From the NCBI GenBank assembly GCA_030428695.1, contig JAUIEM010000075.1, positions 1-29,276 of the forward strand: DNA of 29,276 bases. Direction: 5' to 3'. The stretch's first letter is position 1. Each line of letters opens with the position of its first letter. Position numbers and translations under genes: made by a program. The notes beneath the pieces are model-generated. The model had not been told where the DNA came from. It was given only the letters and a program-made list of their open reading frames with translations, and did no database searches. Shown piece by piece: positions 3,347-22,613 of the stretch. The stretch is from a bacterium. GTDB lineage: Bacteria > Planctomycetota > J058 > JAJDCP01.

Positions 3347-3663
3347 GTCTCCCTCCTGTGGTCGTGGAAATCGATGCAAGCGCCGTGCCACCCTGTAATG
3401 CGCCATCTACTGTCGGTCCCGTCACGCGCTGTGTCCCAGAATGGGCGCGTGTGTCTCAGCATGATACGCACCGGTGTGCCGGCGAGGTGCGTCGCTCCGG
3501 GCAGGGTGGCGGCGGACGGTCGGCCGTCGCCTGAAGTGGCGCGGGGGAGTTGCTATACTCCTTTGACGCGGTCGAGAACCTCCCGTGGCCGGCTCGTAGC
3601 CGGCCGCGCCGCTCGCAAGAGCGGTCCGGGGTCGAGACGTCGTGTGGTGCTTGGGGAGCGGAC
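3347..3663. other. Divergent intergenic region between kinase and helicase-like genes
   Basis: This 317-base stretch holds the 5' region of the minus-strand kinase gene and the promoter and leader of the plus-strand helicase-like gene. Apart from the plus-strand promoter at 3531-3559, no clear operator or structured RNA is visible. Confidence 0.6.
3531..3559 (+). promoter_or_regulatory. Extended -10 sigma70-type promoter for the helicase-like gene
   Basis: TGCTATACT (3551-3559) is an extended -10 box (TGN-TATACT). A weak -35 candidate, CTGAAG (3531-3536), sits 17 bases upstream. Transcription would begin near 3566, giving a leader of about 100 bases to the GTG at 3664. This argues against the longer reading starting upstream at 3550. 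Confidence 0.55.
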
Positions 3664-9872: not shown

Positions 9873-10100
9873 ATGATCTGCCGAGAGATGAAGATCAAGA
9901 TCAAGGATGTGCTGACGCGCATCGAGGAGAAGGACTGGGAGGCGGTCGCCACCAAGGCCCTGCACGGCTTCCCCGAGGACATGATCCTCAACAACACCGA
10001 GAAGTGGCAGGCGATCTGGCGCGTCAAGGAGCACATGGGGCTCGACGAGAACAGCCAGTACGACTTCGAGCGCTTCATGCGCCGCGAAATCTGGATCTGA
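9873..10100 (+). CDS. Small hypothetical protein, 75 residues
   Basis: The ATG at 9873 follows GGGAGGG with good spacing and lies downstream of a TTGACA-type promoter, so this start is preferred over an in-frame ATG at 9810 that overlaps the paraoxonase gene. The soluble, charged, helical product begins MICREMKIKIKD and contains WEAVATKALHGFPEDM and WQAIWRVKEHMG. There is no signal peptide, membrane segment or metal motif. I do not recognise the family. Codon use matches the neighbours. The stop codon runs directly into a palindromic repeat element. Confidence 0.7.
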   Translation: MICREMKIKIKDVLTRIEEKDWEAVATKALHGFPEDMILNNTEKWQAIWRVKEHMGLDENSQYDFERFMRREIWI

Positions 10101-10256
10101 GGGACTGGAACAGAACAACTACTCGTTTTCGCTGACCCTCGCCGCCGCTGGCTGCGTCGCTCGTCGCCCGAATACAGCCCGTATGCGAGCTCCTCGCTCC
10201 TTGCCATCGACGACGATCCCTCACCGAAGACGAGCATCTGTTTCGTTCCAGTCCCT
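10100..10256. repeat. 157-bp palindromic repeat element with 12-bp perfect terminal inverted repeats
   Basis: AGGGACTGGAAC begins at 10100 and its exact reverse complement GTTCCAGTCCCT ends at 10256. Imperfect pairing continues inward; ACTCGTTTTCGCTGA faces the reverse complement of CACCGAAGACGAGC. The centre contains a smaller hairpin, ATAC-AGCCC-GTAT. The element abuts the stop of the 75-residue gene, codes for nothing and could act as a transcription end or RNA hairpin. It resembles non-autonomous MITE or REP-type repeats; no transposase is in the window. Confidence 0.7.
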
Positions 10257-10467
10257 GAGGGCCGCGATCCGGTCCGGTGCGCCAGCGCGCTGGCGCGGCA
10301 CGCCAACGAGTCCGTCCCCGCCACCGGTCGGGGGCGGCCTTCACTTTGTTGGCCAACGATTTGCGGGACTGTGGGAAACGCGCCCGCCGCGGCAGCGAAC
10401 GCGCCTTGCGACGCTTGCCCGCGGCGAGCTATAATGGCTCGGCCCTGACGCGAGGAAAACGCCCCGG
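10257..10467 (+). other. Leader/promoter region of the ESCRT-like operon with palindromes
   Basis: No gene is seen here. It contains a perfect 18-base palindrome GCGCCAGCGCGCTGGCGC (10279-10296) and a 10-base palindrome GTTGGCCAAC (10348-10357), both plausible dimer-binding operators upstream of the promoter at 10406-10435. Their role is inferred only from position. Confidence 0.5.
10406..10435 (+). promoter_or_regulatory. TTGCGA-N18-TATAAT promoter of the ESCRT-like operon
   Basis: A consensus -10, TATAAT (10430-10435), lies 18 bases after TTGCGA (10406-10411). The predicted start near 10442 gives a short leader containing GAGGA before the ATG at 10468. A perfect TATAAT stands out against the GC-rich background. 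Confidence 0.7.
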
Positions 10468-11271
10468 ATGGTCGGAAAGGTCTCCGCCGCCAAGACGATC
10501 GAGGACAGCTTCATCCAGCGCTTCGAGTCCAAGCTGGGCATGCTGGCGACGGTGTTCTGTCCGCTGGACGGCAAACGCTACGAGGCGACGGCCGCGAACC
10601 GGCGCCTGTTCCGCCGCAACCGCAACGCCCACGTCGTCCAGACCCTGAAGAACGCGCAGCGCTTCGAGCGCGAGCTGCTCAAGGCCGTGCCGCTCGACGA
10701 GGCGCTGCACTGCGTGGTGTCCTCCCGCAGCTTCTTCGGCCGGCGCACGCCCCGGGTCGTCCTGATCGGGGCGGTACGCAGCCCGTTGAAGAGCCTGCTC
10801 GGCGACAACGACCGCGCGCTCGGCGCCCTCGACCTCGACGAGGTGATCCGCGCGCTGGTCAAGGATCCGCAGGTCTTCTACTACCTCGGCATCTGCGCGA
10901 CGACGCGCTGGAGCGACGAGGCCTTCGAGCGCATCCCGGTGCTCGACAACGCGCTGATCTGCCTGCTCGAGAGCGCCGGCTCGACGGCCTGGAGGCTCCG
11001 GCCGCAGAGCGACCCGCGCTGGAACGACCTGCTCCCGCTGTTCGATCCGGAGACCGAGGAAGAGAAGGTCGCCCGGGTCGAGGCCTGGGTGCGCGAGCAT
11101 CCGATCCTGGCCCTGCGCGGCGGGCACATGAAGGTCGCCGACATCAGCCGCGAGACCGGCGTCAACGGCGCGCTGCTCGACAAGGCGCTCAAGGCCTGCG
11201 CCGCTCGCGACAGCGAGCTGTCGCTGACGAAGATCGACGACACCGCGATCCTCAAACGCTCCCGACTGTGA
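10468..11271 (+). CDS. Operon-leading protein of unknown function with C-terminal winged-helix-like domain
   Basis: First gene of the ESCRT-like operon; GAGGA lies 11 bases before the ATG. The 267-residue protein has no signal peptide or membrane segment. The N-terminal part (to about 50) is helical and basic, the middle (about 50-195) is a mixed alpha/beta region I do not recognise, and the last 65 residues look like a winged helix: AWVREHPILAL, then HMKVADISRETGVNGALLDKAL, then a short beta-like end. Winged helices form ESCRT-II subunits and some archaeal Cdv linkers, so an adaptor role between cargo or membrane and the ESCRT-III-like proteins is possible. A DNA-binding autoregulator is an equal alternative. 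The next gene starts 7 bases later, so co-expression is very likely. Confidence 0.8.
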   Translation: MVGKVSAAKTIEDSFIQRFESKLGMLATVFCPLDGKRYEATAANRRLFRRNRNAHVVQTLKNAQRFERELLKAVPLDEALHCVVSSRSFFGRRTPRVVLIGAVRSPLKSLLGDNDRALGALDLDEVIRALVKDPQVFYYLGICATTRWSDEAFERIPVLDNALICLLESAGSTAWRLRPQSDPRWNDLLPLFDPETEEEKVARVEAWVREHPILALRGGHMKVADISRETGVNGALLDKALKACAARDSELSLTKIDDTAILKRSRL

Positions 11272-11278
11272 GGTAGGT

Positions 11279-12001
11279 ATGGCCCTGTGGGACAAGATCC
11301 GCGCGTTGTTCGGCGCCAAGGGCGTCTCCGACGAGACGCGCCAGGCGCTCGCCGAGGCGTCGAGCACGAACGATCTGCTCAACCAGCTCGACACCCTGGT
11401 CACGCGCAACGAGATGAAGTGCGCCGAGCTGACGGCGGAGATCGAGAAGCTCGAGGCGCTCGAGAAGGCGCTCGCTGATCGGGTGCGCGCGGGCAAGCTC
11501 GCCGGCCTGAACAAGTCGACGACCCTGCACAAGATCCAGCGCCATCGCAAGCAGAAGGAGAACTACCACTTCCGCCTGAAGATCTACCACAAGAACATCA
11601 ACATGCAGTTGAACTTGATCGGCAAGATCCAGGAAATGGAAGCGATGGAGATGGCCGGCCTCGAGGAGACCAAGATCGACGAGATCCTGCTCAAGGCCGA
11701 GGAGAAGACCGAAGCCTACGAGCGGCTGACCACCGCCGGCAAGGTGCTCGACGAGATGCGCGGCCGGGTCAGCGCGACCGAAGAGCGTGAGCTGGCCGAG
11801 CTCGAGGCCGAGATCATGGCGGGCGTGGTCGACGAGCCCGAGGCAGAGGTCGTCGCGGAGGAAGAGCCCGAGGACGTCGAGCCGGAGATCCTCGAAGAGC
11901 CGGAGCCCGAAGACGAGCTGCCGAGCATCGACGAGATCATGGAAGGGCACCGTCCGCCGCCCCTGCCCGAGACGCCCGACAAGAAACTCGAGTTGAACTG
12001 A
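11279..12001 (+). CDS. ESCRT-III (Snf7/CHMP)-like protein A with acidic, proline-rich C-terminal tail
   Basis: 240 residues. The N-terminus MALWDKIRALFGAKG is a short amphipathic helix ending in LFG, like the membrane-inserting helix of Snf7/CHMP4. Long charged helices follow (about 35-170), with KLEALEKALADRVRAGKLAGL and QLNLIGKIQEMEAMEM resembling the helical hairpin and third helix of ESCRT-III. The middle is basic and the end strongly acidic (EEEPEDVEPEILEEPEPEDE), the usual ESCRT-III charge polarity. The tail ends in RPPPLPETP, similar in character to the proline-rich MIM2 motif that binds MIT domains. By analogy it would polymerise on membranes and be disassembled by the downstream AAA ATPase. 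Homology is inferred from pattern; PspA/Vipp1 is the main alternative, but the tail does not fit that family. Confidence 0.75.
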   Translation: MALWDKIRALFGAKGVSDETRQALAEASSTNDLLNQLDTLVTRNEMKCAELTAEIEKLEALEKALADRVRAGKLAGLNKSTTLHKIQRHRKQKENYHFRLKIYHKNINMQLNLIGKIQEMEAMEMAGLEETKIDEILLKAEEKTEAYERLTTAGKVLDEMRGRVSATEERELAELEAEIMAGVVDEPEAEVVAEEEPEDVEPEILEEPEPEDELPSIDEIMEGHRPPPLPETPDKKLELN

Positions 12002-12010
12002 GGACACAGC

Positions 12011-12658
12011 ATGCCCCTGGGAATCTTCGGCCGCCTGTTCGGCAAGACGGAAGAGCCGCCGACCACGCGCGATCTCAAGGTCGCGTTCATGGGCGTGAAG
12101 CGCGAGCGCAAGAAGAAGCAGCTCGAGATCCGCAAGCTGCGCGTCAAGCGGCAGCAGACCCTCGACGGCCTGAAGAAGGCGCGCAAGAACAACAACACGA
12201 TGGAGGTCGACTTCCTCTGGGAGGAGCTCAAGCACCTGAAGATCGAGGCGGGCTACCTGATGAAGGAGGCCCGCATCCTCAACCTCGAGAGCATCGGGCT
12301 GCAGCGCTACATCCGCGGCATGGAGCGGCTCGAGAAGAGCGGCCAGGCCGGCAAGGTGCAGGGGCTGATCGAGAAGGTGCGGCGCCTCGGCCTCGACGAG
12401 AAGCTGCGCGGCGCCGAGGTCGACGAGGCCGCCTACCTCGACTCCCTGCAGGAGAGCCTCGACGAGATCGAGCTCGAGCTCGAGACCCTCGACACCGACA
12501 TGGAGTCCGACCCGGAGAAGGCTCAGCTGCTCGCCCAGATCGACCTGATCAACGCGGCCGAGGAGAAGGGCGACTTCGAGACCGCCAAGGTCGAAGAGGA
12601 GAAGCTGACCGAGCGGCTCGAGGAGAACGTCGAGACCCTCGAAGACGACGCGTTCTGA
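12011..12658 (+). CDS. ESCRT-III (CHMP)-like protein B with MIM1-like C-terminus
   Basis: 215 residues, starting 9 bases after gene A; TGAGGA overlaps the upstream stop as ribosome-binding site. The N-terminus MPLGIFGRLFGKTEE again has the hydrophobic LFG-type anchor. A strongly basic first helix (KRERKKKQLEIRKLRVKRQQ) is followed by helical segments and an acidic end. The tail carries EEKLTERLEEN (196-206), which fits the eukaryotic MIM1 pattern (D/E)xxLxxRLxxL at every key position except the last Leu. MIM1 binds the MIT domain of Vps4, and the next gene encodes an MIT-like AAA ATPase. Role by analogy: membrane-bound ESCRT-III subunit recruiting the ATPase. No signal peptide or membrane span, so it should act on the cytoplasmic face. 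Confidence 0.77.
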   Translation: MPLGIFGRLFGKTEEPPTTRDLKVAFMGVKRERKKKQLEIRKLRVKRQQTLDGLKKARKNNNTMEVDFLWEELKHLKIEAGYLMKEARILNLESIGLQRYIRGMERLEKSGQAGKVQGLIEKVRRLGLDEKLRGAEVDEAAYLDSLQESLDEIELELETLDTDMESDPEKAQLLAQIDLINAAEEKGDFETAKVEEEKLTERLEENVETLEDDAF

Positions 12659-12668
12659 GAGGTTCCCC

Positions 12669-13886
12669 ATGAGCTTCCTCGACATCAACAGCCAGCTGCA
12701 GAAAGCGCTCGAAGCGACGATGCAGAACGCCAAGAAGGCCTACGCCGGCAAGAAGCTCGGCGAGGCGGCGAAGCACTTCGACCGCGCCTCCGACCTGTTG
12801 CTGCAGCTCGCCGAGAACCAGCCGACCCGCGAGCTCACGCTGCAGAAAAGGAAGAAGGCCTTCGAGTACCGCGAGTTCGCGACCACCCTGCGCGCCGGCG
12901 GGGCGCCCGCCAAGGCCGACGGCCCGCCCGGTCCGGGCAAGGCGCCGGCGAAGAAGGACGGGGAGGAGGGCGACTTCTCGGCGGTCGTGCAGCAGCTCGT
13001 CCACCGCTCGAGCATCACCTGGGACCAGATCGGCGGCCTCGACGAGACGAAGACCGAGATCAAGTTCGCCCTCGGCCTCAGCGTTGCCCAGCCGCCGGCG
13101 GGGGTCGAGATCGCGGCCTGGCGCAACATCCTGTTCTACGGCCCGCCGGGCACCGGCAAGACGCTGCTCGCCGCCGCGACCTCGAACGCGCTGAAGATGG
13201 GCAAGGGCCGCACCGCGATGTTCTTCAACGTCAAGGTCAGCTCGGTGCTGTCGAAGTACTTCGGCGAGTCGTCGAAGATCGTCTCCGAGATCTACGGCAC
13301 GGCCCGCGACGAGAGCCCGTCGGTCGTCTTCCTCGACGAGTTCGAGTCGCTCGGCATGAACCGCGACGAAGAGAGCGCGGGTCCCGAGCGGCGCATCCTG
13401 TCGACCATCCTCGCCGAGCTCGACGGCCTGGCCGAGAAGGGCCGGCGCGACATCTACGTGTTGACCATCGCGGCGACGAACCGGCCCTGGGACCTCGACG
13501 CCGCCGTGCTCTCACGCTTCGAGAAACGCATCCTGATCCCGCTGCCCGATCCGGGCAGCCGGCGCGCGATCCTCGACATCCACCTGCTGAAGAAGGGCTT
13601 CGAGCTCGACTGCTCGGTCGACGACCTCGTCGGGCTGACCGAGGGCTACAGCGGCCGCGAGCTCGAGCGCTTCGCCAAGCAGACCAAGATCCGCATGATC
13701 GCGGAGACCAACGCCGGCATCCCGCAGCTCGTCGACGACGGCTACGCGTCGGTGCGGCGCCACAAGATCGAGGTTCGGCCCCTGACCCTGGCGGACTTCG
13801 AGCTCTCCAGCCGGACGATCGTCCCGCAGACCTCGGCCGAGGACATGCAGCGCTATCTCGACTGGGAAGAACGACAGGAGGCCTGA
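12669..13886 (+). CDS. Vps4-like AAA+ ATPase with N-terminal MIT-like domain (first of two)
   Basis: 405 residues. Residues 1-75 form a three-helix MIT-like domain (KALEATMQNAKKAYAGKKL, GEAAKHFDRASDLLLQLAEN, KRKKAFEYREFATTLR), matching the spacing of Vps4 and spastin MIT domains. After a Pro/Gly/Lys linker the AAA module begins at WDQIGGLDE. Walker A is GPPGTGKT (158-165), Walker B is VVFLDEFES (D223, E224), sensor 1 is AATNRPWDLD, and the RFEKRILIPLPDP motif is typical of the meiotic clade (Vps4, katanin, spastin). It should remodel or depolymerise the adjacent ESCRT-III-like proteins by threading them through a hexamer. It lies 10 bases after gene B and 4 bases before gene C. ATPase activity is well supported; ESCRT function is inferred from neighbours. 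Confidence 0.88.
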   Translation: MSFLDINSQLQKALEATMQNAKKAYAGKKLGEAAKHFDRASDLLLQLAENQPTRELTLQKRKKAFEYREFATTLRAGGAPAKADGPPGPGKAPAKKDGEEGDFSAVVQQLVHRSSITWDQIGGLDETKTEIKFALGLSVAQPPAGVEIAAWRNILFYGPPGTGKTLLAAATSNALKMGKGRTAMFFNVKVSSVLSKYFGESSKIVSEIYGTARDESPSVVFLDEFESLGMNRDEESAGPERRILSTILAELDGLAEKGRRDIYVLTIAATNRPWDLDAAVLSRFEKRILIPLPDPGSRRAILDIHLLKKGFELDCSVDDLVGLTEGYSGRELERFAKQTKIRMIAETNAGIPQLVDDGYASVRRHKIEVRPLTLADFELSSRTIVPQTSAEDMQRYLDWEERQEA

Positions 13887-13890
13887 GGCC

Positions 13891-14481
13891 ATGGGCTTGT
13901 TCAAGTCGAAGGAAGAGCGGCGCCTCGAGCGCCAGATGGAGATCCGCCGCGGCATCAACGCGATCAAGCGCCAGATCAAGCAGCTGCGCAAACACGAGAA
14001 GGACTACCTGAAGAAGGCGGTGCGCGCGCGCGAGCTCGGGGACAGCAACCAGCTCCGCTTCCTCAAGCAGACCGTCAAGCGCACGATCGGCCAGCGGATG
14101 ATGATGGAGCGGCAGCTCTTGTCGATCGAGACCGCGAACCAGATCAAGAACCAGGCCGAGGCCTACGGCTCCTTTGCGAAGTCGATGACCGCGGTCAGCA
14201 CCTCGATCTCCGAGGTGTTCGGCGCGACCGACTTCAACGAGACCCAGAAGTCCTTCGAGCGGGCGATGCACCAGGCCGAGAGCATGGAGCAGCGCATGGA
14301 CATCTTCCTCGACATGGCGAACGAGAGCATGGGCGCCGAGTCGATCACGATGGACGAGGCGGTCAGCGACGAGACCATCGACCGCATGCTCGACGCGGCG
14401 ACGCCGGGCCGCGAGCGGGTGGTCGACAAGGACATCGCGCAGGGGCTCAGCGAGATCGAGAAGGAGCTCGGCAGCCTCTAG
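13891..14481 (+). CDS. ESCRT-III (Vps2/Vps24/CHMP)-like protein C
   Basis: 196 residues; AGGAGG (13876-13881) inside the end of the ATPase gene gives the start. The N-terminus MGLFKSKEERRLERQ closely resembles CHMP3 (MGLF plus basic residues). A basic first helix (INAIKRQIKQLRKHEKDYLK) and KKAVRARELGDSNQLRFLKQ are followed by IETANQIKNQAEAYGSFAKS, a serine-rich VSTSISEVF stretch, and MHQAESMEQRMDIFLDMANE, which follow the order of helices 1 to 4 in CHMP1/2/3 proteins. The acidic C-terminus ends in LSEIEKELGSL, a MIM1-like pattern with Glu in place of Arg. Of the three paralogues this one is most convincingly ESCRT-III by eye. It is the last gene before an intrinsic terminator. Expected role: cytoplasmic membrane-remodelling filament subunit. 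Confidence 0.82.
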   Translation: MGLFKSKEERRLERQMEIRRGINAIKRQIKQLRKHEKDYLKKAVRARELGDSNQLRFLKQTVKRTIGQRMMMERQLLSIETANQIKNQAEAYGSFAKSMTAVSTSISEVFGATDFNETQKSFERAMHQAESMEQRMDIFLDMANESMGAESITMDEAVSDETIDRMLDAATPGRERVVDKDIAQGLSEIEKELGSL

Positions 14482-14507
14482 AGCGGGCGCGGTCGGCATC
14501 GGTATGG

Positions 14508-14530
14508 GACGGATGGCGTCGCCAGCCGTC
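14508..14530 (+). other. Hairpin preceding the terminator
   Basis: GACGG-A-TGGCG pairs with CGCCA-G-CCGTC around a single-base loop position with one A/G mismatch. It lies immediately upstream of the terminator stem and may protect the 3' end of the operon mRNA. Confidence 0.4.
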
Positions 14531-14535
14531 GACGG

Positions 14536-14559
14536 GGGCGGGGAGGGACCCCGCCCTTT
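14536..14559 (+). terminator. Intrinsic terminator after the ESCRT-III-like gene C
   Basis: GGGCGGGG (14536-14543) pairs perfectly with CCCCGCCC (14549-14556) across a five-base loop, followed by TTT. The short T-tract suggests partial termination, separating the first five genes from the following block while allowing some readthrough. Confidence 0.65.
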
Positions 14560-14592: not shown

Positions 14593-15966
14593 ATGATCTG
14601 CAAAGGCAGCAACCTCGCCGGCTACGTGCTCGACGAAGCGCGGGGCAGCGGGCTGTGGAAGGCCCACCGCGAGGACGGGATGGCGGTCGCCCTGCGCCTC
14701 CTGGCCGGCTCCGAGCGCGTGCGCGATCGGGTCGGCGCGGAGCTCGAAGGCGTCCCGCCCATCCTCGAGCTCGAGGCGGACGGCGACCAGCCCTTCCTCA
14801 GCTGCCCCTGGCTCGAGGGCCGCAGCCTGGCCGGCCTGCTCGAGGACGGGCCGCTCGCGCGCGAGGACGCCGCGCGCTGGCTCGGCGAGCTCGCCGACAG
14901 CCTGGCCGCGGTCCACGCCGCGGGGCTGGTCCACGGCGCCCTCGAGCCGAAGCGCGTGGTCGTCGGCCCGGAGCGCGTCTGGCTGACCGGCGTCGGCCTC
15001 GCCCGCGGGCTGCGGGAGAGCGCCTACGCGGCGCCCGAGGTGGTGGCCGGCGAGGCGCCCGACGCGCGCGCCGACGTCTACGCCTTCGGGGTGCTGATGT
15101 TCCGGATGCTGACCGGCGAGCTGCCGAAGGGCCTCGAGGTGCCGAGCGAGCTGGTCGAAGACCTGCCGGACGGCCTCGACGAGGTCTTCCGCCGTTGCTT
15201 CGTGCGCGCCCCGAAGCGCTACGCCGACGCCGGCGCCCTGTGCGAGGATTTCACGCCGGTGCGCATCGCCCTCGAGGTCGCGGCCGAGCGCGCGAAGCTG
15301 GTCGACCCGGGGCCGCTGGTCGACGTGCACCTGCTCGGGTGCGTCGATGCCGCGGCGGTCGGCTCGCTGATTCCCAAGCTCTCCGGCCCGCAGCTGCGGC
15401 AGCTGTTGGACGCCCTTCCCCAGCCGATCCTGCTCGCCCGACCCGAGCCGGAGGCGGATGCGCTGATCGAGGCGTTGAAGGAGGACGCGCGGATGCGGAA
15501 GGTCCCGGCCGGCAGCCCGCTGTTCGACACGGGCGCGGAGGCGTCGCCCGAGCCGGTCGCCGCAGGCCCGGCCGGGAAGTCCAGCCTGCTGCTCAGCCTC
15601 GGCTGTCTGTTCCTGTTCATGTCGGTCGGCCTCGGCGCCTTCCACTTCGCGAAGCCGCTGTGGAATCCTCCGGTGCCCGCCGGGGAGGAGGTTCCCGAGG
15701 ACATCACCCGGGCCCTCGAGGTGCTGCGCGAGGCGATCGATGCCTTCCACGAGGCACACCAGGCCTGGCCCGAGAGCTTCTCCGCCCTGCGCGAGCAGCT
15801 CGAGGAGCGAGGCCGTCCGGACCTGGTCCGCGGCCGCCACGGGCGCTACAGCCTGGTCCTGGTCAAGCAGGGCAAGGTGCTGGCGATCGCGATCGAGAGC
15901 GGCCTGCCGAGCTACCGGAGCCATCCCGGCGAGCCGGTCGTGGAGTTCCGAGGAGGGGAGGAATGA
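14593..15966 (+). CDS. Transmembrane pseudokinase with pilin-like extracytoplasmic domain
   Basis: 457 residues. The N-terminal 220 residues follow the Hanks kinase layout, but the active site is lost. There is no Gly-rich loop, the VAVK lysine is Arg (VALRLL), the catalytic loop reads VHGALEPKR (113-121) instead of HRDxKPxN, and DFG reads GVG (LTGVGLAR). The structural parts YAAPEV and RADVYAFGVLMFRMLTGELP are intact, so the fold should be kept. A single membrane span follows at about 330-352. The outer part, DITRALEVLREAIDAFHEAHQAWPESFSAL, resembles the conserved region of type II pseudopilins. It probably acts as a scaffold or sensor across the membrane. Its stop overlaps the start of the second Vps4-like gene (ATGA), implying coupled translation and a shared job. 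Kinase-fold call firm, pilin-like call tentative. Confidence 0.82.
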   Translation: MICKGSNLAGYVLDEARGSGLWKAHREDGMAVALRLLAGSERVRDRVGAELEGVPPILELEADGDQPFLSCPWLEGRSLAGLLEDGPLAREDAARWLGELADSLAAVHAAGLVHGALEPKRVVVGPERVWLTGVGLARGLRESAYAAPEVVAGEAPDARADVYAFGVLMFRMLTGELPKGLEVPSELVEDLPDGLDEVFRRCFVRAPKRYADAGALCEDFTPVRIALEVAAERAKLVDPGPLVDVHLLGCVDAAAVGSLIPKLSGPQLRQLLDALPQPILLARPEPEADALIEALKEDARMRKVPAGSPLFDTGAEASPEPVAAGPAGKSSLLLSLGCLFLFMSVGLGAFHFAKPLWNPPVPAGEEVPEDITRALEVLREAIDAFHEAHQAWPESFSALREQLEERGRPDLVRGRHGRYSLVLVKQGKVLAIAIESGLPSYRSHPGEPVVEFRGGEE

Positions 15967-17099
15967 GCCAGGCGCGGTTCCTGATCGAGAGCGCGGAGCG
16001 CCTGGCCGAGGAGGCGCGGGCCGCCGAGCGTCGGGACGAGCCGAAGAAGGCGAAGCGGGCCTGGTTCGAGGCGGGCAAGATGATGCTGCTCGCTGCCCAG
16101 GAGACCCCGGCGGACAGCGAGGAGAACAAGGCCCTGCGCGCGCTGCGCAAGCTCGAGGGCCAGGAGTTCGTCGCCAAGGCGAAGGCGATCGGCCAGCCGA
16201 AGAAGAAGGCGGCCGCGAAGAAGATGGCGCTGCAGGCCGACGAGTCCGAGGGCGCCGACGAGGACGCCTTCGTCGCCCTCGAGCGGCCGGATGTCCGCTT
16301 CGACAAGATCGCCGGCCTCGAGCACGCCAAGGAGCAGATCCGCCTGCGCATGATCTACCCCTTCCAGAACCGTGACCTCGCCTCGCTGTACGGCATCCAG
16401 AAGGGTGGCGGGATGCTCCTCTGGGGGCCGCCGGGCACCGGCAAGACGCTGCTCGCCCGCGCGGTCGCGGGGGAGATCGAGGTACCCTTCTTCTCGGTCA
16501 AGCCCTCGGAGATCATGAGCAAGTTCGTCGGCACCGCCGAGAAGAACATCGAGCGCCTGTTCGAGACCGCCCGCAAGCACCCGCTGTCGGTGATCTTCAT
16601 CGATGAGGTCGAGGCCCTGGTGCCGCGCCGGGCGGGCAGCCAGTCGAACGTGATGACCCGGCTGGTGCCGCAGATCCTCGCCGAGCTCGAGGGGGTCGAC
16701 AGCGAGGGCAGGAACCCGCTGCTGTTCATCGGCGCGACCAACGAGCCGTGGTCCCTCGACCCTGCCGTCTTGCGGCCGGGCCGCTTCGATGTCAAGGTCT
16801 ACGTCGGGCTGCCGGACATCGCGGCGCGGACGGTGATCCTGAAGCTGAACCTCGACGGCCGGCCCCTCGCTCCCGAGCTCGACCTCGAGGCCTTCGCGCG
16901 GAGCCTCGAGGGATACTCCGGAGCGGACATCAGGAACATCTGCCAGACCGCGGCCCAGAATGCCTTCCTCGAGGCGATGAAGAGCGGGCAGACCGCTCCG
17001 ATCGGGCTCGACGACCTCGAGGCGGCGCGTGGCAAGCCTTCGGTCGCCCGCGACGACCTCACGCGCTTCGAGCAGTACCGGGACAGGAGCTGGGCCTGA
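15963..17099 (+). CDS. Vps4-like AAA+ ATPase with N-terminal MIT-like domain (second of two)
   Basis: 378 residues; the ATG overlaps the pseudokinase stop. The N-terminus (about 1-75: SAERLAEEARAAERRDE, AKRAWFEAGKMMLLAAQET) is a helical bundle consistent with MIT. A basic linker leads to FDKIAGLEHAKEQIRLRMIY, Walker A GPPGTGKT (155-162), Walker B VIFIDEVEAL (D214, E215), sensor 1 GATNEPWSLD and the Arg-bearing LRPGRFDVKVYV. The extreme C-terminus KPSVARDDLTRFEQYRDRSW matches the Vps4 C-terminal helix region (KPSVxxxDLxxxExF), a clade signature. It differs from the first ATPase in its second-region motif, so the two are not a recent duplication. It may serve a different ESCRT-III-like partner or form a mixed hexamer (inference). 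Confidence 0.88.
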   Translation: MSQARFLIESAERLAEEARAAERRDEPKKAKRAWFEAGKMMLLAAQETPADSEENKALRALRKLEGQEFVAKAKAIGQPKKKAAAKKMALQADESEGADEDAFVALERPDVRFDKIAGLEHAKEQIRLRMIYPFQNRDLASLYGIQKGGGMLLWGPPGTGKTLLARAVAGEIEVPFFSVKPSEIMSKFVGTAEKNIERLFETARKHPLSVIFIDEVEALVPRRAGSQSNVMTRLVPQILAELEGVDSEGRNPLLFIGATNEPWSLDPAVLRPGRFDVKVYVGLPDIAARTVILKLNLDGRPLAPELDLEAFARSLEGYSGADIRNICQTAAQNAFLEAMKSGQTAPIGLDDLEAARGKPSVARDDLTRFEQYRDRSWA

Positions 17100-17174
17100 G
17101 CGGACGTTGGAACCAGATTTGCAGACGGTGTGCTGTCTCCGCCCGCGCGGAGGCCCGCACGACGAGGAGGTGTC

Positions 17175-19067
17175 ATGGCTTGGGATTGGTGGCGATCGCA
17201 CGCGAGCGCGAAAGCCTGTCTGCTCCGGTCGTCGGAGCTGCCCGGCATCTTCAGCAAGGAGCTCGTGGTGCCCGAGCGCACCCGCGCGTTCGTCGAGTGG
17301 GAGAACGGGGACACGAAGATCCTGCGCGCCGGCGAGACCGCGACGGGCAGCTTCCAGGCCATTCTGACACTCGCGCTGCCCTTCGAGCTGCCGTTGATGC
17401 TCCACAACGTCGTCAGCTCCGAGGGCTATGAGGGCGCGCTCTCCTTCAGCCTCGAGCTGAGCTTCGGCGAGGAGCCTCTCGACTTCGAGGCGCTGCGCAC
17501 CAACCTGCTCGCACGCCACGCCCGGGTCGACAGCCAGGTGCTCGAGGGCTGGCTCGGCGAAGCGGCGGAGGCCAGCGTGCGCAGCTGGCTGTCCGGGCGC
17601 AGCGCGGCAGCGGTCTACCGCGACGGGCCGCAGGGCCTGCGCGAGGTGCTGCACGAGGCGCTCAAGGCCGGGCTGTTCGAGGCGGGCTGCGTGTTCGCGG
17701 GCGTCGGCCAGTGGAAGTTCAGCTGCGAGACCTACGAGCGCATCCGCGCCAAAGAGGCGGCCGCCCTCGCCCAGGTCGAGGAGGCGCGCCGCGAGGAGAG
17801 CGCCCGCGACGAGGCCAACCGGCTCAAGAAGGAGAACTTCCTCAAGGCGCTGCAGTACGAGCGCGAGGTCGACGACCGCGCGATCTCCCAGAAGGTCGCC
17901 CAGTTCGAGGCCCTGCGCGAGAAGCTCGGCGACGAGGACCGGGCGATGATCGCGCTGCTCGAGGATGAGGACGCCAAGCGCGCCCTGATCGAGCGCCTGG
18001 TCGAGCGCGAGATGTCCCCCGAGCAGATCCGCGCCCGCAAGGTCGAGGAGATCGAGGCCCGCTTCGAGAAGCAGTACCAGGCCTTGCTGAAGGCCGTCGC
18101 CAGCCACGGCGCCGTCGACACCGACGCCCTGGTCAGCTGCCGGCGGATGACGACGCGCCGGGTGCTGGTCGCGCTCGGCAAGCAGATCCTCAGCTTCGAC
18201 CCGACCACCAACCTCGACCCGGACGTGCCGAAGGAGCGCTACGACTTCCGCAACCGCGGCCTCGGCTACCTGCGCTCGATCCGCGCCTACCGCCGCGACG
18301 ACCAGGACGAGCTCTACGCCGGCGCCCAGCGCGGGGTCTACCGGGTGGTCGGCGGCGAGGTGACCGAGTTCCCCTTCCCCCGTCCGCCCCAGGGCAAGGG
18401 CGGGACGAACTCGGTCGCGGTGTTCAAGGACAAGCTCTACGCGACCCACAGCGAGGTCGGCCTGTGCTGCTGGGACGTGCGCGGCCTGACCCCGGCGCGC
18501 GGCCTGTGGCAGGACCGCACCCGCGGGCGCGACTCCGTGCGCGGGGCCTTCGTCGACCACATGGGCAACCTGTTCTTCTCGGCCGGCAACCAGATCTTCC
18601 GCTCGAACCTGGTCAAGGACCAGGACCTGACCGTGTTCTCGGGCGCCAAGGACGCGATCACCGCCTTCCTCGTCGTCGACCAGAGCCTGATCGCCGGTGA
18701 CAAGGCCGGGCGCATCATGGTCTGGAAGCAGTCCGATCCGAACAGCCCGCGCCAGTTCCGCGTCGTCAAGCCGAACCCGATCTACATGCTGAAGTCCTCG
18801 ATGTTGCGCGGCCTCCCGCACCTGTTGATCGGGGCGAAGGACTACGGGGTCACCGCCGCCCTGCTCGAGGGCGACCGCGACATCGAGTACCGCTGCCAGG
18901 ACCCGGTCCGCTGGGTGGGGGGCGCCTCGGACATGATCTACGGCGTCGACCGCACCGGCTACCGCGTGCTGTGCTGGGACGCCGCCAAGCCGGGCCGGCA
19001 GACCCACACCATCCGGGTCGCGGACGCGATCCAGGACCTGTACGTGATCAAGGAGGAGGCCACGTGA
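17175..19067 (+). CDS. SPFH/Band-7-like domain, coiled coil and beta-propeller protein
   Basis: The start is fixed by GAGGAGGT (17164-17171) before the ATG. The product is 630 residues. Residues 25-190 read like an SPFH/Band-7 domain (KELVVPERTRAFVEWENGD, then RNVV-type beta strands and ARVDSQVLEGWLGEAAEASV), followed by the usual long charged coiled coil (about 190-310: ERIRAKEAAALAQVEEARRE). From about 315 to the end there are repeated beta-strand units (DELYAGAQRGVYRVV, DKLYATHSEVGLCCWDV, SLIAGDKAGRIMVWK) that form a WD40/PQQ-type beta-propeller. SPFH proteins build ring scaffolds on membranes. No membrane span is obvious, so it is probably peripheral on the inner face. SPFH-AAA-ESCRT-III clustering suggests a shared membrane-remodelling task. 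The stop overlaps the next start. Confidence 0.75.
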   Translation: MAWDWWRSHASAKACLLRSSELPGIFSKELVVPERTRAFVEWENGDTKILRAGETATGSFQAILTLALPFELPLMLHNVVSSEGYEGALSFSLELSFGEEPLDFEALRTNLLARHARVDSQVLEGWLGEAAEASVRSWLSGRSAAAVYRDGPQGLREVLHEALKAGLFEAGCVFAGVGQWKFSCETYERIRAKEAAALAQVEEARREESARDEANRLKKENFLKALQYEREVDDRAISQKVAQFEALREKLGDEDRAMIALLEDEDAKRALIERLVEREMSPEQIRARKVEEIEARFEKQYQALLKAVASHGAVDTDALVSCRRMTTRRVLVALGKQILSFDPTTNLDPDVPKERYDFRNRGLGYLRSIRAYRRDDQDELYAGAQRGVYRVVGGEVTEFPFPRPPQGKGGTNSVAVFKDKLYATHSEVGLCCWDVRGLTPARGLWQDRTRGRDSVRGAFVDHMGNLFFSAGNQIFRSNLVKDQDLTVFSGAKDAITAFLVVDQSLIAGDKAGRIMVWKQSDPNSPRQFRVVKPNPIYMLKSSMLRGLPHLLIGAKDYGVTAALLEGDRDIEYRCQDPVRWVGGASDMIYGVDRTGYRVLCWDAAKPGRQTHTIRVADAIQDLYVIKEEAT

Positions 19068-19975
19068 GCGAGCAGCGATCCGTCGTGCAGTGGAACGTCT
19101 CCTTCGCCGGGGTGATCGTCGGCGTCCTCGCGGTCGTCGGTGTGATCGTCTACTTCACGACCTACCACGAGAGCACGCCCGAGCGGCCGACCCCCGAGCT
19201 GAATTTCTACGAGGAGTACTTGATCGAGGAGGCCAGCCACGCGCTGGCGGACGACATGCCGGCCCTGACCGGCCTGCACAGCGTCGTCTTCGTGCCGCTG
19301 CGGGACGCCGAGAGCAAGGGCGCCCTCGCGGTCGACGCCTTCCACGAGGCCCTGCGCGAGAACGGCCGCTACCAGAGCGTGTCCGAGGACGCGGTGCGGA
19401 CCGCGATCGAGAAGCTGCTGCCCGAGGGCGGCGATGTCGGAAGTCCCGAGCAGGCGCTCAAGCTGGTGCGGGAGATCCTCGTCGACAAGGACGGCAAGCC
19501 GGTCGCCGACGGGGTGCTGCTGACCCGGGCCGAGGTCGAGGGGCGCATCGGCGATCAGGCGCGGGTCTTCCTCGAGGCGCAGATCATCGATGCGAAGAGC
19601 GGCGTCCCGGTCATCGCCGAGGGCATGCCGAAGTCGCACACGGCGAAGATCGAGAGCAAGTGGACCTGGGCCTGGTTCGTCGGCACGATGAACGAGATCG
19701 CCGTCGGCTGGCGGCTGTTCATCTGGGCGGCGGTGGTCGCCTTCCTGCCCTTCGCCCTGTCCGGCCTGGTCAACGCGATCACCAAGCGCGAGCGCAACCG
19801 CGACAACGCCTGGATGGTGCTCGGCTTCACCGCCTTCGCCGGGCTGTTCGCCTGGTTCCTCGTCGGCTTCTACATCAGCGGCACGGGCAGCGGGATGATG
19901 GTCTTCGCGGGCCTGATGCTCGGCGGCCTCTACAGCCTCTGGGCCTGTACCCACATCTACGAGAAGGGGAAGTAA
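19064..19975 (+). CDS. Membrane protein with CsgG/LpoB-like periplasmic domain
   Basis: The GTG at 19064 overlaps the upstream TGA (GTGA), so translation is coupled; the protein is 303 residues. It has an N-terminal membrane span (about 13-32), a periplasmic domain of about 180 residues, and three C-terminal spans (about 220-240, 250-275, 278-297). The periplasmic part reads HSVVFVPLRDAESKGALAVD, ALRENGRYQSVSEDAV, ADGVLLTRAEVEG and VFLEAQIIDAKSGVPVI, an order like that of CsgG/LpoB-type domains (strand, helix, strand, ADG-hydrophobic, iid-sG). These usually bind peptidoglycan-linked or outer-membrane partners. Here it may link the cytoplasmic machinery to the envelope (inference). There is no lipobox. 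Confidence 0.78.
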   Translation: MSEQRSVVQWNVSFAGVIVGVLAVVGVIVYFTTYHESTPERPTPELNFYEEYLIEEASHALADDMPALTGLHSVVFVPLRDAESKGALAVDAFHEALRENGRYQSVSEDAVRTAIEKLLPEGGDVGSPEQALKLVREILVDKDGKPVADGVLLTRAEVEGRIGDQARVFLEAQIIDAKSGVPVIAEGMPKSHTAKIESKWTWAWFVGTMNEIAVGWRLFIWAAVVAFLPFALSGLVNAITKRERNRDNAWMVLGFTAFAGLFAWFLVGFYISGTGSGMMVFAGLMLGGLYSLWACTHIYEKGK

Positions 19976-19977
19976 CC

Positions 19978-20724
19978 CTGCACGCCACCCGCGAAGCCGC
20001 GCTCGAGAGCCCCTACACCCTGCGCCGCCGCGGCGCCGGCTACGAGGAGCTGCCGGGCCGTGGCCTGGCCGGGCTGCTCGCCGAGCGCGAGGGGCTGCCC
20101 TCGGGCAGCGCCCTGCGCTACGGTCTGCACCTCGCCCGCTCGCTGCGCGAGGCCCACGGCCGGGGGCGGGCCCACGGGGAGGTCGCGGCGGAGGCGGTGT
20201 TCCTCGAGCGCCTCGAGCGGCACTGCTGCGAAGCCGAGAAGTACCGGGCGAAGCTGCGCTATCCCGCTCCGCGCAGCCTCGACGAGGCGGCGCGTCGCGC
20301 CGACCTCCGGGCCTGGGCCGCGCTGTGCCGGCGTCTGGCCGCGGTCGAGGAGCCGCCGCCGGCCCCGCTCCTCGCGGTGGCCGAGGCGTGCGCGCGCGGC
20401 GAGGTGCAGGGCTTCGCCGAGGTCTGCGCGCGGCTCGAGGCCGGCGTGGTCGCGGGGCTGCGTCCCTCGCTGACGCGTCGCGCGGCCGGATTCCTGCTCG
20501 ACGGCGGGCTGGTGCTCGCGTTGTTCGGCCGCATGCCGGCGCTCGCGCTGGTCGTGTGGCTGGTCTACGACGGGGGCGTGCGGCCGCTGGCCGGCCGCAG
20601 CGTCGGCGAGTGGGTCGCGCGCCTGCCCGCCTCGCGGAGCGCGCGGGCCTGGCTCGTGCGGGCCGTCTGCTTCGCCCTGGTCGCGGGCGCCCTGTCGCTG
20701 TTCGTGTTCCCCTCGTCCCCCTAG
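19978..20724 (+). CDS. Pseudokinase C-lobe fused to an RDD-like membrane domain, probable CTG start
   Basis: 248 residues if read from CTG at 19978. No ATG or GTG is well placed. The CTG follows AAGGGGAAG by a few bases and comes two bases after the previous stop, so it is the best start; this is unusual and uncertain. The first half lacks an N-lobe but keeps a C-lobe outline: ALRYGLHLARSLREAHGRGRAHGEVAAEAVFLE corresponds to helix E plus catalytic loop, with the loop reduced to HGEVAAEAV (H66-V74), YPAPRS stands where APE would be, and RADLRAWAALCRRL follows. The second half has two or three hydrophobic segments beginning TRRAAGFLLDGG, typical of RDD domains but shortened. It must be catalytically dead as a kinase. 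Its partner may be the kinase-RDD protein two genes downstream. Confidence 0.7.
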   Translation: MHATREAALESPYTLRRRGAGYEELPGRGLAGLLAEREGLPSGSALRYGLHLARSLREAHGRGRAHGEVAAEAVFLERLERHCCEAEKYRAKLRYPAPRSLDEAARRADLRAWAALCRRLAAVEEPPPAPLLAVAEACARGEVQGFAEVCARLEAGVVAGLRPSLTRRAAGFLLDGGLVLALFGRMPALALVVWLVYDGGVRPLAGRSVGEWVARLPASRSARAWLVRAVCFALVAGALSLFVFPSSP

Positions 20725-20754
20725 CGCTTCCGCGCACTGACACAGGAAGTCGTC

Positions 20755-21312
20755 TTGAGTCGCAAGCACATGTTCGCGTTGTTCCTGGTGGTCGCCGTCT
20801 TCGGCACCGCCCTCGACCTGTGGTCGAAGTCCTACGTCTTCGACAGCCTGGGCGCCGAGCTCGACCCCGCCGCGCCGGAGAGATTCCAGCCCGGGGAGAG
20901 CTACGTCATCATCGAGGGGATGTTCGACTTCAGCTGCGCGGTGAACTTCGGGGTCGCGTTCAGCCAACTGCGGGGGAAGACGGGCCTGATCATCGGCTTC
21001 TCCTTCCTGGCGATGCTGCTGGTCTGCTGGATGCAGTACAAGCTGCCGGAGGGCGCGTGGGGCCGGTCGCTCGCGCTCGGCGCGATCATCTCCGGGGCGC
21101 TCGGCAACGTGTACGACCGCCTGACCTACGGGGTCGTCCGGGACTTCATCCACTGCTGGTACCAGGACTGGCACTACCCGACCTTCAACGTCGCCGACAT
21201 GGCGATCGTGATCGGGGCGGTGGTGATCATCCTCGCCGAGTTCGGCCGCAAGGAACCGGACAAGGACGCCTCGAGCTTCAAGGACAAGCCGGCCGCGAAG
21301 AAGAAGGGCTGA
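20755..21312 (+). CDS. lspA: Signal peptidase II (prolipoprotein signal peptidase)
   Basis: The TTG start at 20755 follows CAGGAAG; the protein is 185 residues. Four membrane spans fit LspA. The N-terminal motif is ALDLWSKSYVF, and the two catalytic aspartates lie in GNVYDRLTYGVVRDFI (D130) and FNVADMAI (D148), 18 residues apart as in other LspA proteins. It cleaves the signal peptide of diacylglyceryl-modified lipoproteins in the inner membrane. It is somewhat longer than usual because of an insertion after the first span (about 30-50) and a Lys-rich cytoplasmic tail. It sits between two kinase-like RDD genes within the same run, so it may be a dedicated copy or just a housekeeping passenger. 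The sequence alone does not say whether another copy exists. Confidence 0.93.
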   Translation: MSRKHMFALFLVVAVFGTALDLWSKSYVFDSLGAELDPAAPERFQPGESYVIIEGMFDFSCAVNFGVAFSQLRGKTGLIIGFSFLAMLLVCWMQYKLPEGAWGRSLALGAIISGALGNVYDRLTYGVVRDFIHCWYQDWHYPTFNVADMAIVIGAVVIILAEFGRKEPDKDASSFKDKPAAKKKG

Positions 21313-21320
21313 TCGACACA

Positions 21321-22613
21321 TTGGTTGCCCACGCTTCGCCCGGAGACTCCATCGGTGAGTACCAGCTCGACTGCCTGCTCGGACAGGGCGGCTTCGGCGA
21401 GATCTGGAAGGCCCACCATCGCGCCTTCCGCGAGCAGCTCGTCGCGATCAAGCTGCCGCGCGGGGAGGCAGACCGCGAGGCGCTGCGCAGGGAGGGGGAC
21501 CTCCAGCACCGCCTGCGGCATCCGGGCATCGTCCGCTGCCTCGGCATGGACCTCGAGGCCACGCCTCCCTACATCGTGATGGAGTACCTGCCGGGCGGGA
21601 CCCTGCGGGACAAGCTGCAGGCGGGACCCCTGCCCTGGCAGGAAGCGGCCGGGCTGACGCGGGAGATCCTGACGACGCTGCGCGCCGCGCACGCCGACGA
21701 CGTCGTCCACCTCGACCTCAAGCCCGAGAACGTGCTGTTCGACGAGGAGGGACGCAGCAAGCTGACCGACTTCGGGCTCAGCCGCTCGCTGAACGACCTC
21801 GAGACCTCGCTGCAGTTCTCGGCGGAGAACGCCTCGACGGTCGCCGGCACCCTCGCCTACATGGCCCCGGAGCAGCGCAAGGGCGAGGCCGCCGACGCCT
21901 CGACCGACCTGTTCGCGGTCGGCGCGATGCTGTTCGAGATGCTGACCGGCGAGCCCCCGGTCGGCGCGGACAGCCTGCGCGAGCTCGTTCCGCAGGCGCC
22001 GCTCGGGCTCGACGCGGTGTTCCGCCGCTCCTTCACGCGGCGCGCGCGGCGCTACCGCAGCGCGCAGGCGATGCTGCAGGCCCTCGACCGCGCGACCGCG
22101 GTGCCGCGCTCGCTTCCTCCGCCGTTTCCTGCGCCGCTGCCCCCGCCGCGCTGGCCGACCCGCACGACCGTCGCGGTGCCCGGCCCGCTGCCGCCCCCGC
22201 CACCCTACGGCCAGGCGCTGCCGGCGCGGCTGCGGGCGGGCTTCACCGAGCGCGGCCTGGCGATGCTGGTCGACGCGCTGTTCGGGGTGCTCGTCCTGGT
22301 CGCGCTGGTGCAGCTCCCGGCCACCCTCGTGGGGAGCGGGAACGTGCTCTCGCTCGAGTGGTGGGGGCCGGCCTACCTCGCCTACCGCTGGTTGGGGCAG
22401 GGGCTCTTCGGGGGCACCCCGGGGCAGCGGCTCATCGGCCTGCGGGTGGTGCGCTACGCCGACGGGGGACCGCTCGGCCTCGGGCTGGCGCTCGCGCGGG
22501 CCCTCGCCTTCTGCCTAGCCCTCGTCACGTTGTTCGGGCTGCCTCTGGCCGGGCTGTCCGCCAAGCGCGGGCTGCACGACTACCTGGCGGGGACCTGCGT
22601 GCAGCGGATGTAG
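21321..22613 (+). CDS. Ser/Thr protein kinase with C-terminal RDD membrane domain
   Basis: The start is set at TTG 21321, eight bases after the lspA stop; a CTG at 21309 is an alternative. The 430-residue protein has a complete kinase: GQGGFG (21-26), VAIK lysine 44, catalytic loop HLDLKPEN (130-137), DFG (150-152), GTLAYMAPEQ and STDLFAVGAMLFEMLTGEPP. The Arg of HRD is replaced by Leu, so this is a non-RD kinase, which usually does not depend on activation-loop phosphorylation. A Pro-rich linker (about 265-300) leads to an RDD domain with FTERGLAMLVDALFG, FGGTPGQRLIGLRVVR and LHDYLAG and three or more spans. The kinase faces the cytoplasm. It is the only catalytically complete kinase in the 14.6-22.6 kb block and is the probable signalling enzyme for it (inference). 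Confidence 0.9.
   Translation: MVAHASPGDSIGEYQLDCLLGQGGFGEIWKAHHRAFREQLVAIKLPRGEADREALRREGDLQHRLRHPGIVRCLGMDLEATPPYIVMEYLPGGTLRDKLQAGPLPWQEAAGLTREILTTLRAAHADDVVHLDLKPENVLFDEEGRSKLTDFGLSRSLNDLETSLQFSAENASTVAGTLAYMAPEQRKGEAADASTDLFAVGAMLFEMLTGEPPVGADSLRELVPQAPLGLDAVFRRSFTRRARRYRSAQAMLQALDRATAVPRSLPPPFPAPLPPPRWPTRTTVAVPGPLPPPPPYGQALPARLRAGFTERGLAMLVDALFGVLVLVALVQLPATLVGSGNVLSLEWWGPAYLAYRWLGQGLFGGTPGQRLIGLRVVRYADGGPLGLGLALARALAFCLALVTLFGLPLAGLSAKRGLHDYLAGTCVQRM

What the first reader, a model, noticed from the sequence alone, without database searches (positions are those of the whole stretch)
10406..14559. A complete-looking bacterial ESCRT-III/Vps4 operon
Seen: one promoter, five genes 4-10 bases apart, one terminator. 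Three of them encode small helical proteins with basic N-termini and acidic C-termini whose first residues resemble CHMP proteins, and one encodes an MIT-like AAA ATPase with the meiotic-clade RFEKRxxIPLP motif. Known: bacterial ESCRT-III relatives PspA and Vipp1 are not normally encoded with a cognate MIT-Vps4 ATPase; such operons are characteristic of archaea and eukaryotes. Inference: a bacterial membrane fission or repair machine. I cannot tell whether it has already been described.
Basis: partly seen in the sequence, partly recalled or inferred. Interest (0 to 1): 0.95.

Follow-up and report, generated by a model that had tools for sequence, protein, structure and literature searches.

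The report
Bacterial ESCRT system with two ATPases

Summary
The finding holds and is larger than reported. The five genes exist as described. Gene 5 is a Snf7-type ESCRT-III relative by profile. Gene 3 is predicted to have the ESCRT-III helix layout. Genes 1 and 2 match the winged-helix and ESCRT-III-like halves of one protein in 26 aligned relatives (the CHMP7 layout). Gene 5 relatives were found in 74 named loci (Planctomycetota, Hydrogenedentes, Sumerlaeota, Clostridia) and in 46 of 246 Planctomycetota genomes; an AAA gene is near in 51 of 75 loci. In one clostridial order ESCRT-III and Vps4-like genes each occur in 14 of 151 genomes, together in 11 (P = 8e-12), on one contig each time. [quoted passage not shown] another 2024 paper reports bacterial Snf7-AAA links of other kinds. 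Function is untested: I infer ATP-driven membrane remodelling. A general FtsZ replacement is unlikely: 200 of 246 Planctomycetota genomes lack gene 5 although none has FtsZ above cut-off, and 11 of 12 further carriers match FtsZ. Origin (archaeal transfer or ancient) is untested.

The parts
10406..10435 (+). sigma-70-like promoter TTGCGA-18 nt-TATAAT
   Evidence: consensus scan, 10 of 12
10468..11271 (+). gene 1, 267 aa: predicted alpha/beta domain plus C-terminal winged helix (ESCRT-II-like module); in 26 aligned relatives in one frame with gene 2
   Evidence: hhalign to N-half of fusions prob 99.9, E 2.4e-33; winged helix about 190-260 in the model of the L040 fusion
11279..12001 (+). gene 2, 240 aa: predicted ESCRT-III-like protein with acidic, proline-containing tail
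   Evidence: hhalign to C-half of fusions prob 98.9, E 2e-17; hairpin 283-381 of the fusion model; no Pfam match
12011..12658 (+). gene 3, 215 aa: predicted ESCRT-III fold (helices 5-10, 19-59, 63-110, 113-126, 137-166)
   Evidence: AlphaFold2 mean pLDDT 85.2; top 15 Foldseek rows ESCRT-III superfamily, all weak
12669..13886 (+). gene 4, 405 aa: MIT-AAA-Vps4_C ATPase, clade A
   Evidence: Pfam AAA 1.2e-32, Vps4_C 0.013; CdvC model over 19-404, under its cut-off; tree
13891..14481 (+). gene 5, 196 aa: Snf7-type ESCRT-III relative with MIM1-like C-terminal helix
   Evidence: Pfam Snf7 3.9e-4, 40 of 58 relatives, PDB SNF7, tail
14536..14556 (+). GC-rich hairpin, possible weak terminator (TTT follows)
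   Evidence: folding; not called by the consensus scan
14593..15966 (+). gene 6, 457 aa: kinase-like protein whose HRD and DFG motifs are not recognisable (pseudokinase) with a hydrophobic, likely transmembrane stretch near residue 331
   Evidence: Pfam Pkinase 1.3e-9; sequence
15963..17099 (+). gene 7, 378 aa: second MIT-AAA ATPase, clade B, the type shared with Phycisphaerae and Clostridia
   Evidence: Pfam AAA 1.6e-40; NCBIfam; tree; starts inside the gene 6 stop
17175..19067 (+). 630 aa protein: SPFH-like N-domain (inferred from relatives), coiled coil, beta-propeller; GTG start at 17130 also possible
   Evidence: family in 20 loci; Band_7 in 3 of 10 members scanned, all under the curated cut-off, not in the window copy; propeller profile
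20325..22613 (+). Ser/Thr protein kinase with RDD membrane domain; true start uncertain, the ORF overlaps 19090-20724
   Evidence: Pfam Pkinase 8.9e-43, RDD 2.2e-12; kinase cluster in 26 loci

Best explanation
The cluster encodes relatives of ESCRT-III and Vps4 in what is likely a bacterial genome, and it is predicted to work as an ESCRT machine: ESCRT-III subunits would co-polymerise on a membrane and the MIT-AAA ATPases would bind their tails, extract subunits and so drive remodelling or sealing. Shown by sequence: a Snf7-profile protein (gene 5), two ATPases with intact Walker motifs, MIT-like N-domains in the ATPase families, and their recurrence together in several bacterial phyla. Predicted: ESCRT-III folds for genes 2 and 3, a winged helix for gene 1. 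Inferred: gene 1 nucleates the polymer through gene 2 (as CHMP7 does with both domains in one chain); gene 5's C-terminal helix is the MIT ligand; an SPFH-propeller protein anchors or recruits the complex at the membrane; kinases set its activity. Most likely role: repair or remodelling of the cytoplasmic membrane or its invaginations, not a general substitute for FtsZ.
For: Gene 5: Pfam Snf7 3.9e-4, under Pfam's cut-off; Snf7 at E up to 0.1 in 40 of 58 aligned relatives, best 4.7e-8; the family profile's PDB hits at E up to 1 are five, all SNF7 or CHMP2A; 17 of the 119 relatives listed carry PF03357. ATPases: AAA in 47 of 47 and Vps4_C in 41 of 47 aligned, at E up to 0.1; MIT; in 4 of 5 genomes the top CdvC-model hit is the cluster's own ATPase, in the fifth a 427-aa ORF outside the fetched locus; FtsH-sized proteins (658-706 aa) score lower. 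Genes 1-2 fusion. Gene 3 model. Linkage: AAA gene within 4.5 kb of gene 5 on the same strand in 51 of 75 loci, 38 of the 45 with enough flank; co-occurrence in one clostridial order, 14 and 14 of 151 genomes, 11 shared, P 8e-12. Tails: spaced hydrophobic motif in 57 of 75 gene 5 C-termini against 6.8 +/- 2.5 when shuffled (motif chosen after seeing the tails). Bacterial context: sigma-70 family genes on the same contig as gene 5 in 5 of 8 genomes (capped list). SPFH neighbour in clostridial loci and weakly in planctomycete loci.
Against: No function was tested. The window's gene 5 is under the Pfam Snf7 cut-off (20.6 against 27.3 bits) and its ATPases far under the CdvC cut-off (160.7 and 197.5 against 650); PAN or CDC48 models score as high or higher for both, and the CdvC match of gene 7 starts only at residue 80. 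Genes 2 and 3 have no ESCRT-III sequence match; gene 5 and gene 2 profiles do not align, gene 5 and gene 3 only weakly (prob 28). Structure matches are within the range of chance for long helices, and unrelated chains score as high or higher. TPR repeat proteins outscore MIT structures, and the window's own gene 4 N-domain hits MIT at only 0.11. 24 of 75 loci show no AAA nearby (many are cut by contig ends, some are not). No archaeal or eukaryotic Vps4 could be added to the tree.
Confidence: 0.82

Rival explanations
1. The small proteins are unrelated coiled-coil adaptors and the ATPases are Cdc48/PAN-like unfoldases of another pathway, so this is not an ESCRT machine.
For: CDC48 or PAN models score as high as or above CdvC for both window ATPases; genes 2 and 3 lack ESCRT-III sequence matches; coiled-coil models match many unrelated helices.
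Against: Snf7 profile in 40 of 58 gene 5 relatives, SNF7/CHMP2A the only PDB families hit; MIT and Vps4_C in the ATPase families; winged-helix/ESCRT-III-like fusion.
Confidence: 0.1
2. The cluster is the division machine of FtsZ-less planctomycetes, as Cdv is in Sulfolobus.
For: No FtsZ above cut-off in any of 246 Planctomycetota genomes; none of the 46 gene 5 carriers is among the 9 genomes with a weaker FtsZ hit; in the genome of L063 ftsZ lies about 2.2 kb from gene 5.
Against: 200 of the 246 genomes lack gene 5 relatives, so most of the sampled phylum divides without it; of 12 further carriers (9 clostridial, one Hydrogenedentes, one Sumerlaeota, one planctomycete) 11 have an FtsZ match, 10 above cut-off, the miss being the planctomycete.
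Confidence: 0.12
3. It is a phage-defence or damage-response module that uses ESCRT proteins to seal membranes.
For: A protein family with HEPN near 7 loci (one member scanned) and one with TIR-TPR near 5 clostridial loci (one member scanned); kinases common nearby.
Against: These neighbours are not constant; not scanned against PADLOC; the core is conserved without them.
Confidence: 0.08
4. Archaeal DNA misassigned to bacterial bins.
For: By title nearly all carriers are metagenome-assembled genomes.
Against: Bacterial sigma-70 family genes on the same contigs in 5 of 8 genomes; that search rings in 10 of 10 bacterial controls and none of 4 archaeal ones. Occurrence in 46 of 246 genomes of one phylum.
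Confidence: 0.02

Closest known systems
Archaeal ESCRT systems of Makarova et al. 2024 (PMC10936438; abstract, passages and part 1 of section 5 read)
   Same: Vps4, ESCRT-III, winged-helix protein, often Ser/Thr kinase; SPFH protein with zinc ribbon in the Meth_adaptin type; HEPN and PQQ among the figure's domain abbreviations
   Different: Here in bacteria, where that paper says such systems do not occur; three ESCRT-III-like genes, two ATPases, SPFH-propeller protein; arCOG08177 or CdvA relatives were not looked for
Eukaryotic CHMP7 with Snf7/CHMP4 and VPS4 (recalled)
   Same: winged helix followed by ESCRT-III domain in one chain in the fused form; MIT-AAA partner
   Different: genes 1 and 2 are separate in the window; one winged helix seen in the model, with an alpha/beta domain in front
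Bacterial PspA and Vipp1/IM30
   Same: ESCRT-III superfamily helical hairpin; SPFH partner known for PspA (Makarova 2024 passage)
   Different: P0005 matches Snf7 and not the PspA profile; several paralogues; dedicated MIT ATPases
Bacterial Snf7 and VPS4-like genes of the PSP survey (PMC11237479, passages read)
   Same: reports Snf7-clade genes in some bacteria, VPS4-like ATPases transferred to bacteria, and PspA or TM-bearing Snf7 genes with AAA ATPases
   Different: there snf7 is displaced beside the VPS4-like ATPase, or the AAA protein has two AAA domains; no operon of several ESCRT-III genes with MIT-Vps4 in the passages seen (its supplements were not seen)

Membership tests
ESCRT-III (Snf7) | Snf7 profile match | tested here: met
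   gene 5 family: 40 of 58 members at E up to 0.1, best 4.7e-8; window gene 5 itself 3.9e-4, under the curated cut-off. Genes 2 and 3: no match
ESCRT-III (Snf7) | long alpha1-alpha2 hairpin with short helices after it | tested here: met
   predicted, not solved: gene 3 and the gene 2-like half of the L040 fusion; gene 5 not modelled; structure matches weak by score
ESCRT-III (Snf7) | C-terminal MIM that binds MIT | tested here: inconclusive
   MIM1-like spacing (recalled motif) in 57 of 75 tails against 6.8 shuffled, pattern set after inspection; binding not tested
ESCRT-III (Snf7) | polymerises on membranes | not testable with these tools
   needs protein
Vps4 | N-terminal MIT domain | tested here: met
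   for the families: Pfam MIT in 7 of 35 N-domains at E up to 1, best 1.2e-6; SKD1 MIT structure at 2.5e-4 over 9-72, below TPR rows; window gene 4 alone 0.11
Vps4 | single AAA cassette with Walker A/B and Vps4_C helix | tested here: met
   AAA 47 of 47, Vps4_C 41 of 47; motifs in both window ATPases; Vps4_C 0.013 in gene 4, not listed for gene 7
Vps4 | MIT domain or ESCRT gene neighbourhood (criteria of Makarova 2024) | tested here: met
   neighbourhood met in 51 of 75 loci, the window among them
Vps4 | falls in the Vps4 clade of a tree with archaeal and eukaryotic members | not tested
   no archaeal or eukaryotic sequences were obtained
CdvC (NCBIfam NF041006) | score above the curated cut-off of 650 bits | tested here: not met
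   160.7 (gene 4) and 197.5 bits (gene 7); best of the nine proteins is 239.7
PspA/Vipp1 | PspA_IM30 profile match | tested here: not met
   not among Pfam matches of P0001-P0003 or P0005 (HMMER's filters drop most matches above 0.1)
CHMP7-like winged helix plus ESCRT-III | winged helix followed by ESCRT-III domain | tested here: met
   fused relatives, 26 aligned; model of L040; in the window as two adjacent genes

The most novel reading that the evidence does not exclude
Bacteria of several phyla run a true ESCRT system: a hetero-polymer of ESCRT-III subunits started by a CHMP7-like winged-helix partner, dismantled by one or two Vps4-type motors and tied to the membrane by an SPFH-propeller protein. 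In planctomycete relatives one gene, through an internal start with its own ribosome-binding site, would make both the nucleator and the bare filament subunit. ESCRT machines are then not an archaeal-eukaryotic invention kept from bacteria.
Probability: 0.65. Interest if true: 0.95.

Novelty: new variant of a known kind. Interest (0 to 1): 0.9.

Why it matters
[quoted passage not shown] A multi-part version in Planctomycetota, Sumerlaeota, Hydrogenedentes and Clostridia would change that picture, offer a bacterial setting in which to study ESCRT mechanics, and give candidate machinery for the unusual membranes of planctomycetes. It also makes origin testable: transfer from archaea, or a bacterial branch as old as PspA.

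Tried and rejected
Rejected: PspA/Vipp1 (no PspA profile match). Rejected as general: FtsZ replacement. Rejected: archaeal contamination. Rejected: 'complete five-gene operon' - the cluster goes on past gene 5.

Led nowhere: sequence search of gene 3 and gene 2 families against PDB (unrelated and coiled-coil rows only) and of the fusion profile (designed coiled coils first; CHMP4B at E 1.5); gene 5 against gene 2 profiles; Rfam on the window (none). The N-terminal alpha/beta domain of gene 1 has no assigned fold: the structure searches barely tested it. Placing the ATPases among archaeal and eukaryotic Vps4 was not possible; the tree holds only cluster ATPases and six AAA proteins of 654-692 aa that I took for FtsH by size (not checked with the FtsH model); that outgroup was not monophyletic, and clade B has support 0.61. 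In the class of G003 each of the ESCRT-III and ATPase searches matched one genome of 245, the same one, too few to use. SSU rRNA was found in 8 of 12 genomes but on other contigs or contigs not compared with gene 5, and its controls ring in archaea too, so it was not used.

Rows dropped or not used: A1 aligned 58 of the 120 proteins listed (307 found); A3 aligned 47 of the 62 AAA ORFs in the neighbourhood cluster, leaving out very long or cut ORFs and near-duplicates; A2 50 of 63 gene 3-type ORFs; A8 35 of those 47 ATPases; A5 26 fused ORFs, leaving out L027, L051, L052 and L055 (longer or cut at a contig end). Neighbour families were assigned by one or a few scanned members. Record titles such as 'Proteobacteria' (L024) and 'Kuenenia' (L011) were not verified.


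Full report
What is there. Five genes at 10468-14481 are spaced 7, 9, 10 and 4 bases apart behind a sigma-70-like promoter. The window is 70% G+C and no whole genome is held for it. After a 111-base gap with a hairpin, gene 6 encodes a kinase-like protein without recognisable HRD or DFG motifs and with a likely membrane segment; its stop overlaps the start of gene 7, a second AAA ATPase. A coiled-coil/propeller protein (17175-19067) and a membrane kinase (20325-22613) follow.

Gene 5. Pfam Snf7 at 3.9e-4, under the curated cut-off. A search of 5.8 billion proteins gave 307 at E up to 1e-3; of the 119 relatives listed, 17 carry a precomputed Snf7 domain, and those with an organism in the name are Planctomycetota, Sumerlaeota or an unplaced bacterium. 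Of 58 aligned members 40 match Snf7 at E up to 0.1, best 4.7e-8. The profile's five PDB hits at E up to 1 are SNF7 (best 7.6e-4) and CHMP2A; a profile led by clostridial members hits CHMP2A first (0.0053), with unrelated rows below and CHMP3 at 0.94.

The ATPases. All 47 aligned have AAA, and 41 match Vps4_C at E up to 0.1. N-domains match MIT in 7 of 35 at E up to 1 (best 1.2e-6; TPR_2 also in 7, best 0.0014); their profile hits VPS4/SKD1 MIT structures over the whole domain (2.5e-4), while TPR proteins score higher, the top one by summing repeats. The CdvC model aligns from MIT to C-terminus in gene 4 and in five of the nine proteins, but only from residue 80 in gene 7, always far under its cut-off, with CDC48 and PAN close or above. 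In 4 of 5 genomes the top CdvC-model hit is the cluster's own ATPase, in the fifth (G005) a 427-aa ORF outside the fetched locus; FtsH-sized proteins score lower. In a tree the gene 4 type (15 sequences, support 1.0) and the gene 7 type (32, support 0.61, including all Phycisphaerae and Clostridia in the alignment) separate.

Distribution. The genome scan found 74 loci: by title 56 planctomycete groups, 12 Clostridia or similar, one Hydrogenedentes, one Sumerlaeota, four others. AAA genes lie near gene 5 in 51 of 75 loci including the window, 38 of 45 with enough flank; gene 3 in 58 and gene 1 or 2 in 57 of 75, none of these in the 12 clostridial loci at the thresholds used, though a few of those have weak gene 3-like hits. 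Whole-genome samples: 46 of 246 Planctomycetota, 1 of 68 in the phylum of G004 (Hydrogenedentes locus), 1 of 199 in the phylum of G003 (clostridial locus), 14 of 151 in one clostridial order. In that order a Vps4-like ATPase (E up to 1e-60) also occurs in 14, shared with ESCRT-III in 11, each time on the same contig with starts 0.6-6.3 kb apart.

Neighbours. A kinase cluster is near 26 loci (two members scanned), the propeller family near 20 (including the window), a HEPN family near 7 (one scanned); nine clostridial loci have a family member of an SPFH protein upstream (one scanned, Band_7_1 2.9e-13; zinc-ribbon cysteine pairs invariant in 7 of 7 aligned). Of 10 propeller-family members scanned, 3 hit Band_7 (4e-4, 5.8e-4, 0.048; all under the cut-off) and the window copy does not. 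Archaeal ESCRT loci are reported with winged-helix proteins, kinases and SPFH-zinc-ribbon proteins, a similar set.

Tails. Gene 5 C-termini keep a spaced hydrophobic helix (57 of 75; 6.8 +/- 2.5 after shuffling, highest 14; pattern set after looking) that resembles MIM1 as I recall it.

A side finding. In all 26 aligned fusions the junction keeps an in-frame ATG, preceded by a Shine-Dalgarno-like 4-mer in 18 of 26 against 18 of 243 other in-frame ATGs (5-mer 13 of 26 against 2 of 243; 8 of 26 have neither). I infer that one gene makes both the long and the short protein.

Bacterial or not. Sigma-70 family genes sit on the same contig as gene 5 in 5 of 8 genomes, in a capped list; that search rings in all 10 bacterial and none of 4 archaeal controls. 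The window's own phylum is inferred from its relatives only.

Division. None of 246 Planctomycetota genomes has FtsZ above cut-off; 9 have weaker hits, none of them among the 46 carriers. But 200 of the 246 lack gene 5 relatives, and of 12 further carriers 11 have FtsZ matches, 10 above cut-off. A general FtsZ replacement is unlikely.

Literature. [quoted passage not shown] The PSP survey (passages) reports bacterial Snf7-clade genes, VPS4-like ATPases without snf7, and PspA or TM-Snf7 with AAA ATPases, so bacterial Snf7-AAA links are partly anticipated. The passages seen of PMC7618577 and the one of PMC7203096 (only its first 300,000 characters are held) mention no bacterial Vps4 system; other papers were seen only in listings. 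Ten searches (one search matched nothing) listed no paper whose title or abstract start describes this cluster; preprints and most subscription papers are not held.

Mended against the calls: hairpin coordinates, thresholds behind Pfam counts, the genome-level CdvC statement (4 of 5), the FtsZ wording, and the number of loci as against clusters.

Noticed in passing
A5 fusions, e.g. L030 (ORF 5808-7307), L042 (5293-6729): Invariant in-frame internal ATG at the gene 1/gene 2 junction with a Shine-Dalgarno-like motif (18 of 26 against 18 of 243 control ATGs): likely two products from one gene.
   Followed up: partly
L063 and genome G003 contig C7 171321-175083: ftsZ lies about 2.2 kb upstream of the ESCRT-III gene, with a gene of the SPFH family between.
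   Followed up: no
window 10097-10135 and 10221-10259: 39-nt inverted repeat, 79% complementary, upstream of the promoter.
   Followed up: no
window 23568-29168, - strand: 1866-aa protein with an eCIS core domain near its C-terminus.
   Followed up: no
L071, L073, L074: Tandem ESCRT-III/ATPase pairs, two in a row, the second ATPase ORF longer and more divergent.
   Followed up: no
L066 6430-8160 and members of its family near four other clostridial loci: Protein with TIR and TPR-like domains near ESCRT-III and the ATPase; only the L066 member was scanned.
   Followed up: no
window 3550-8700 +: 1716-aa DEAD-box helicase with a MrfA zinc-binding domain.
   Followed up: no
P0126-P0245: A large family of ATPases close to the L066 Vps4-like protein, many with Vps4_C annotated, on contigs from many sources; the three named are Clostridia.
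   Followed up: partly
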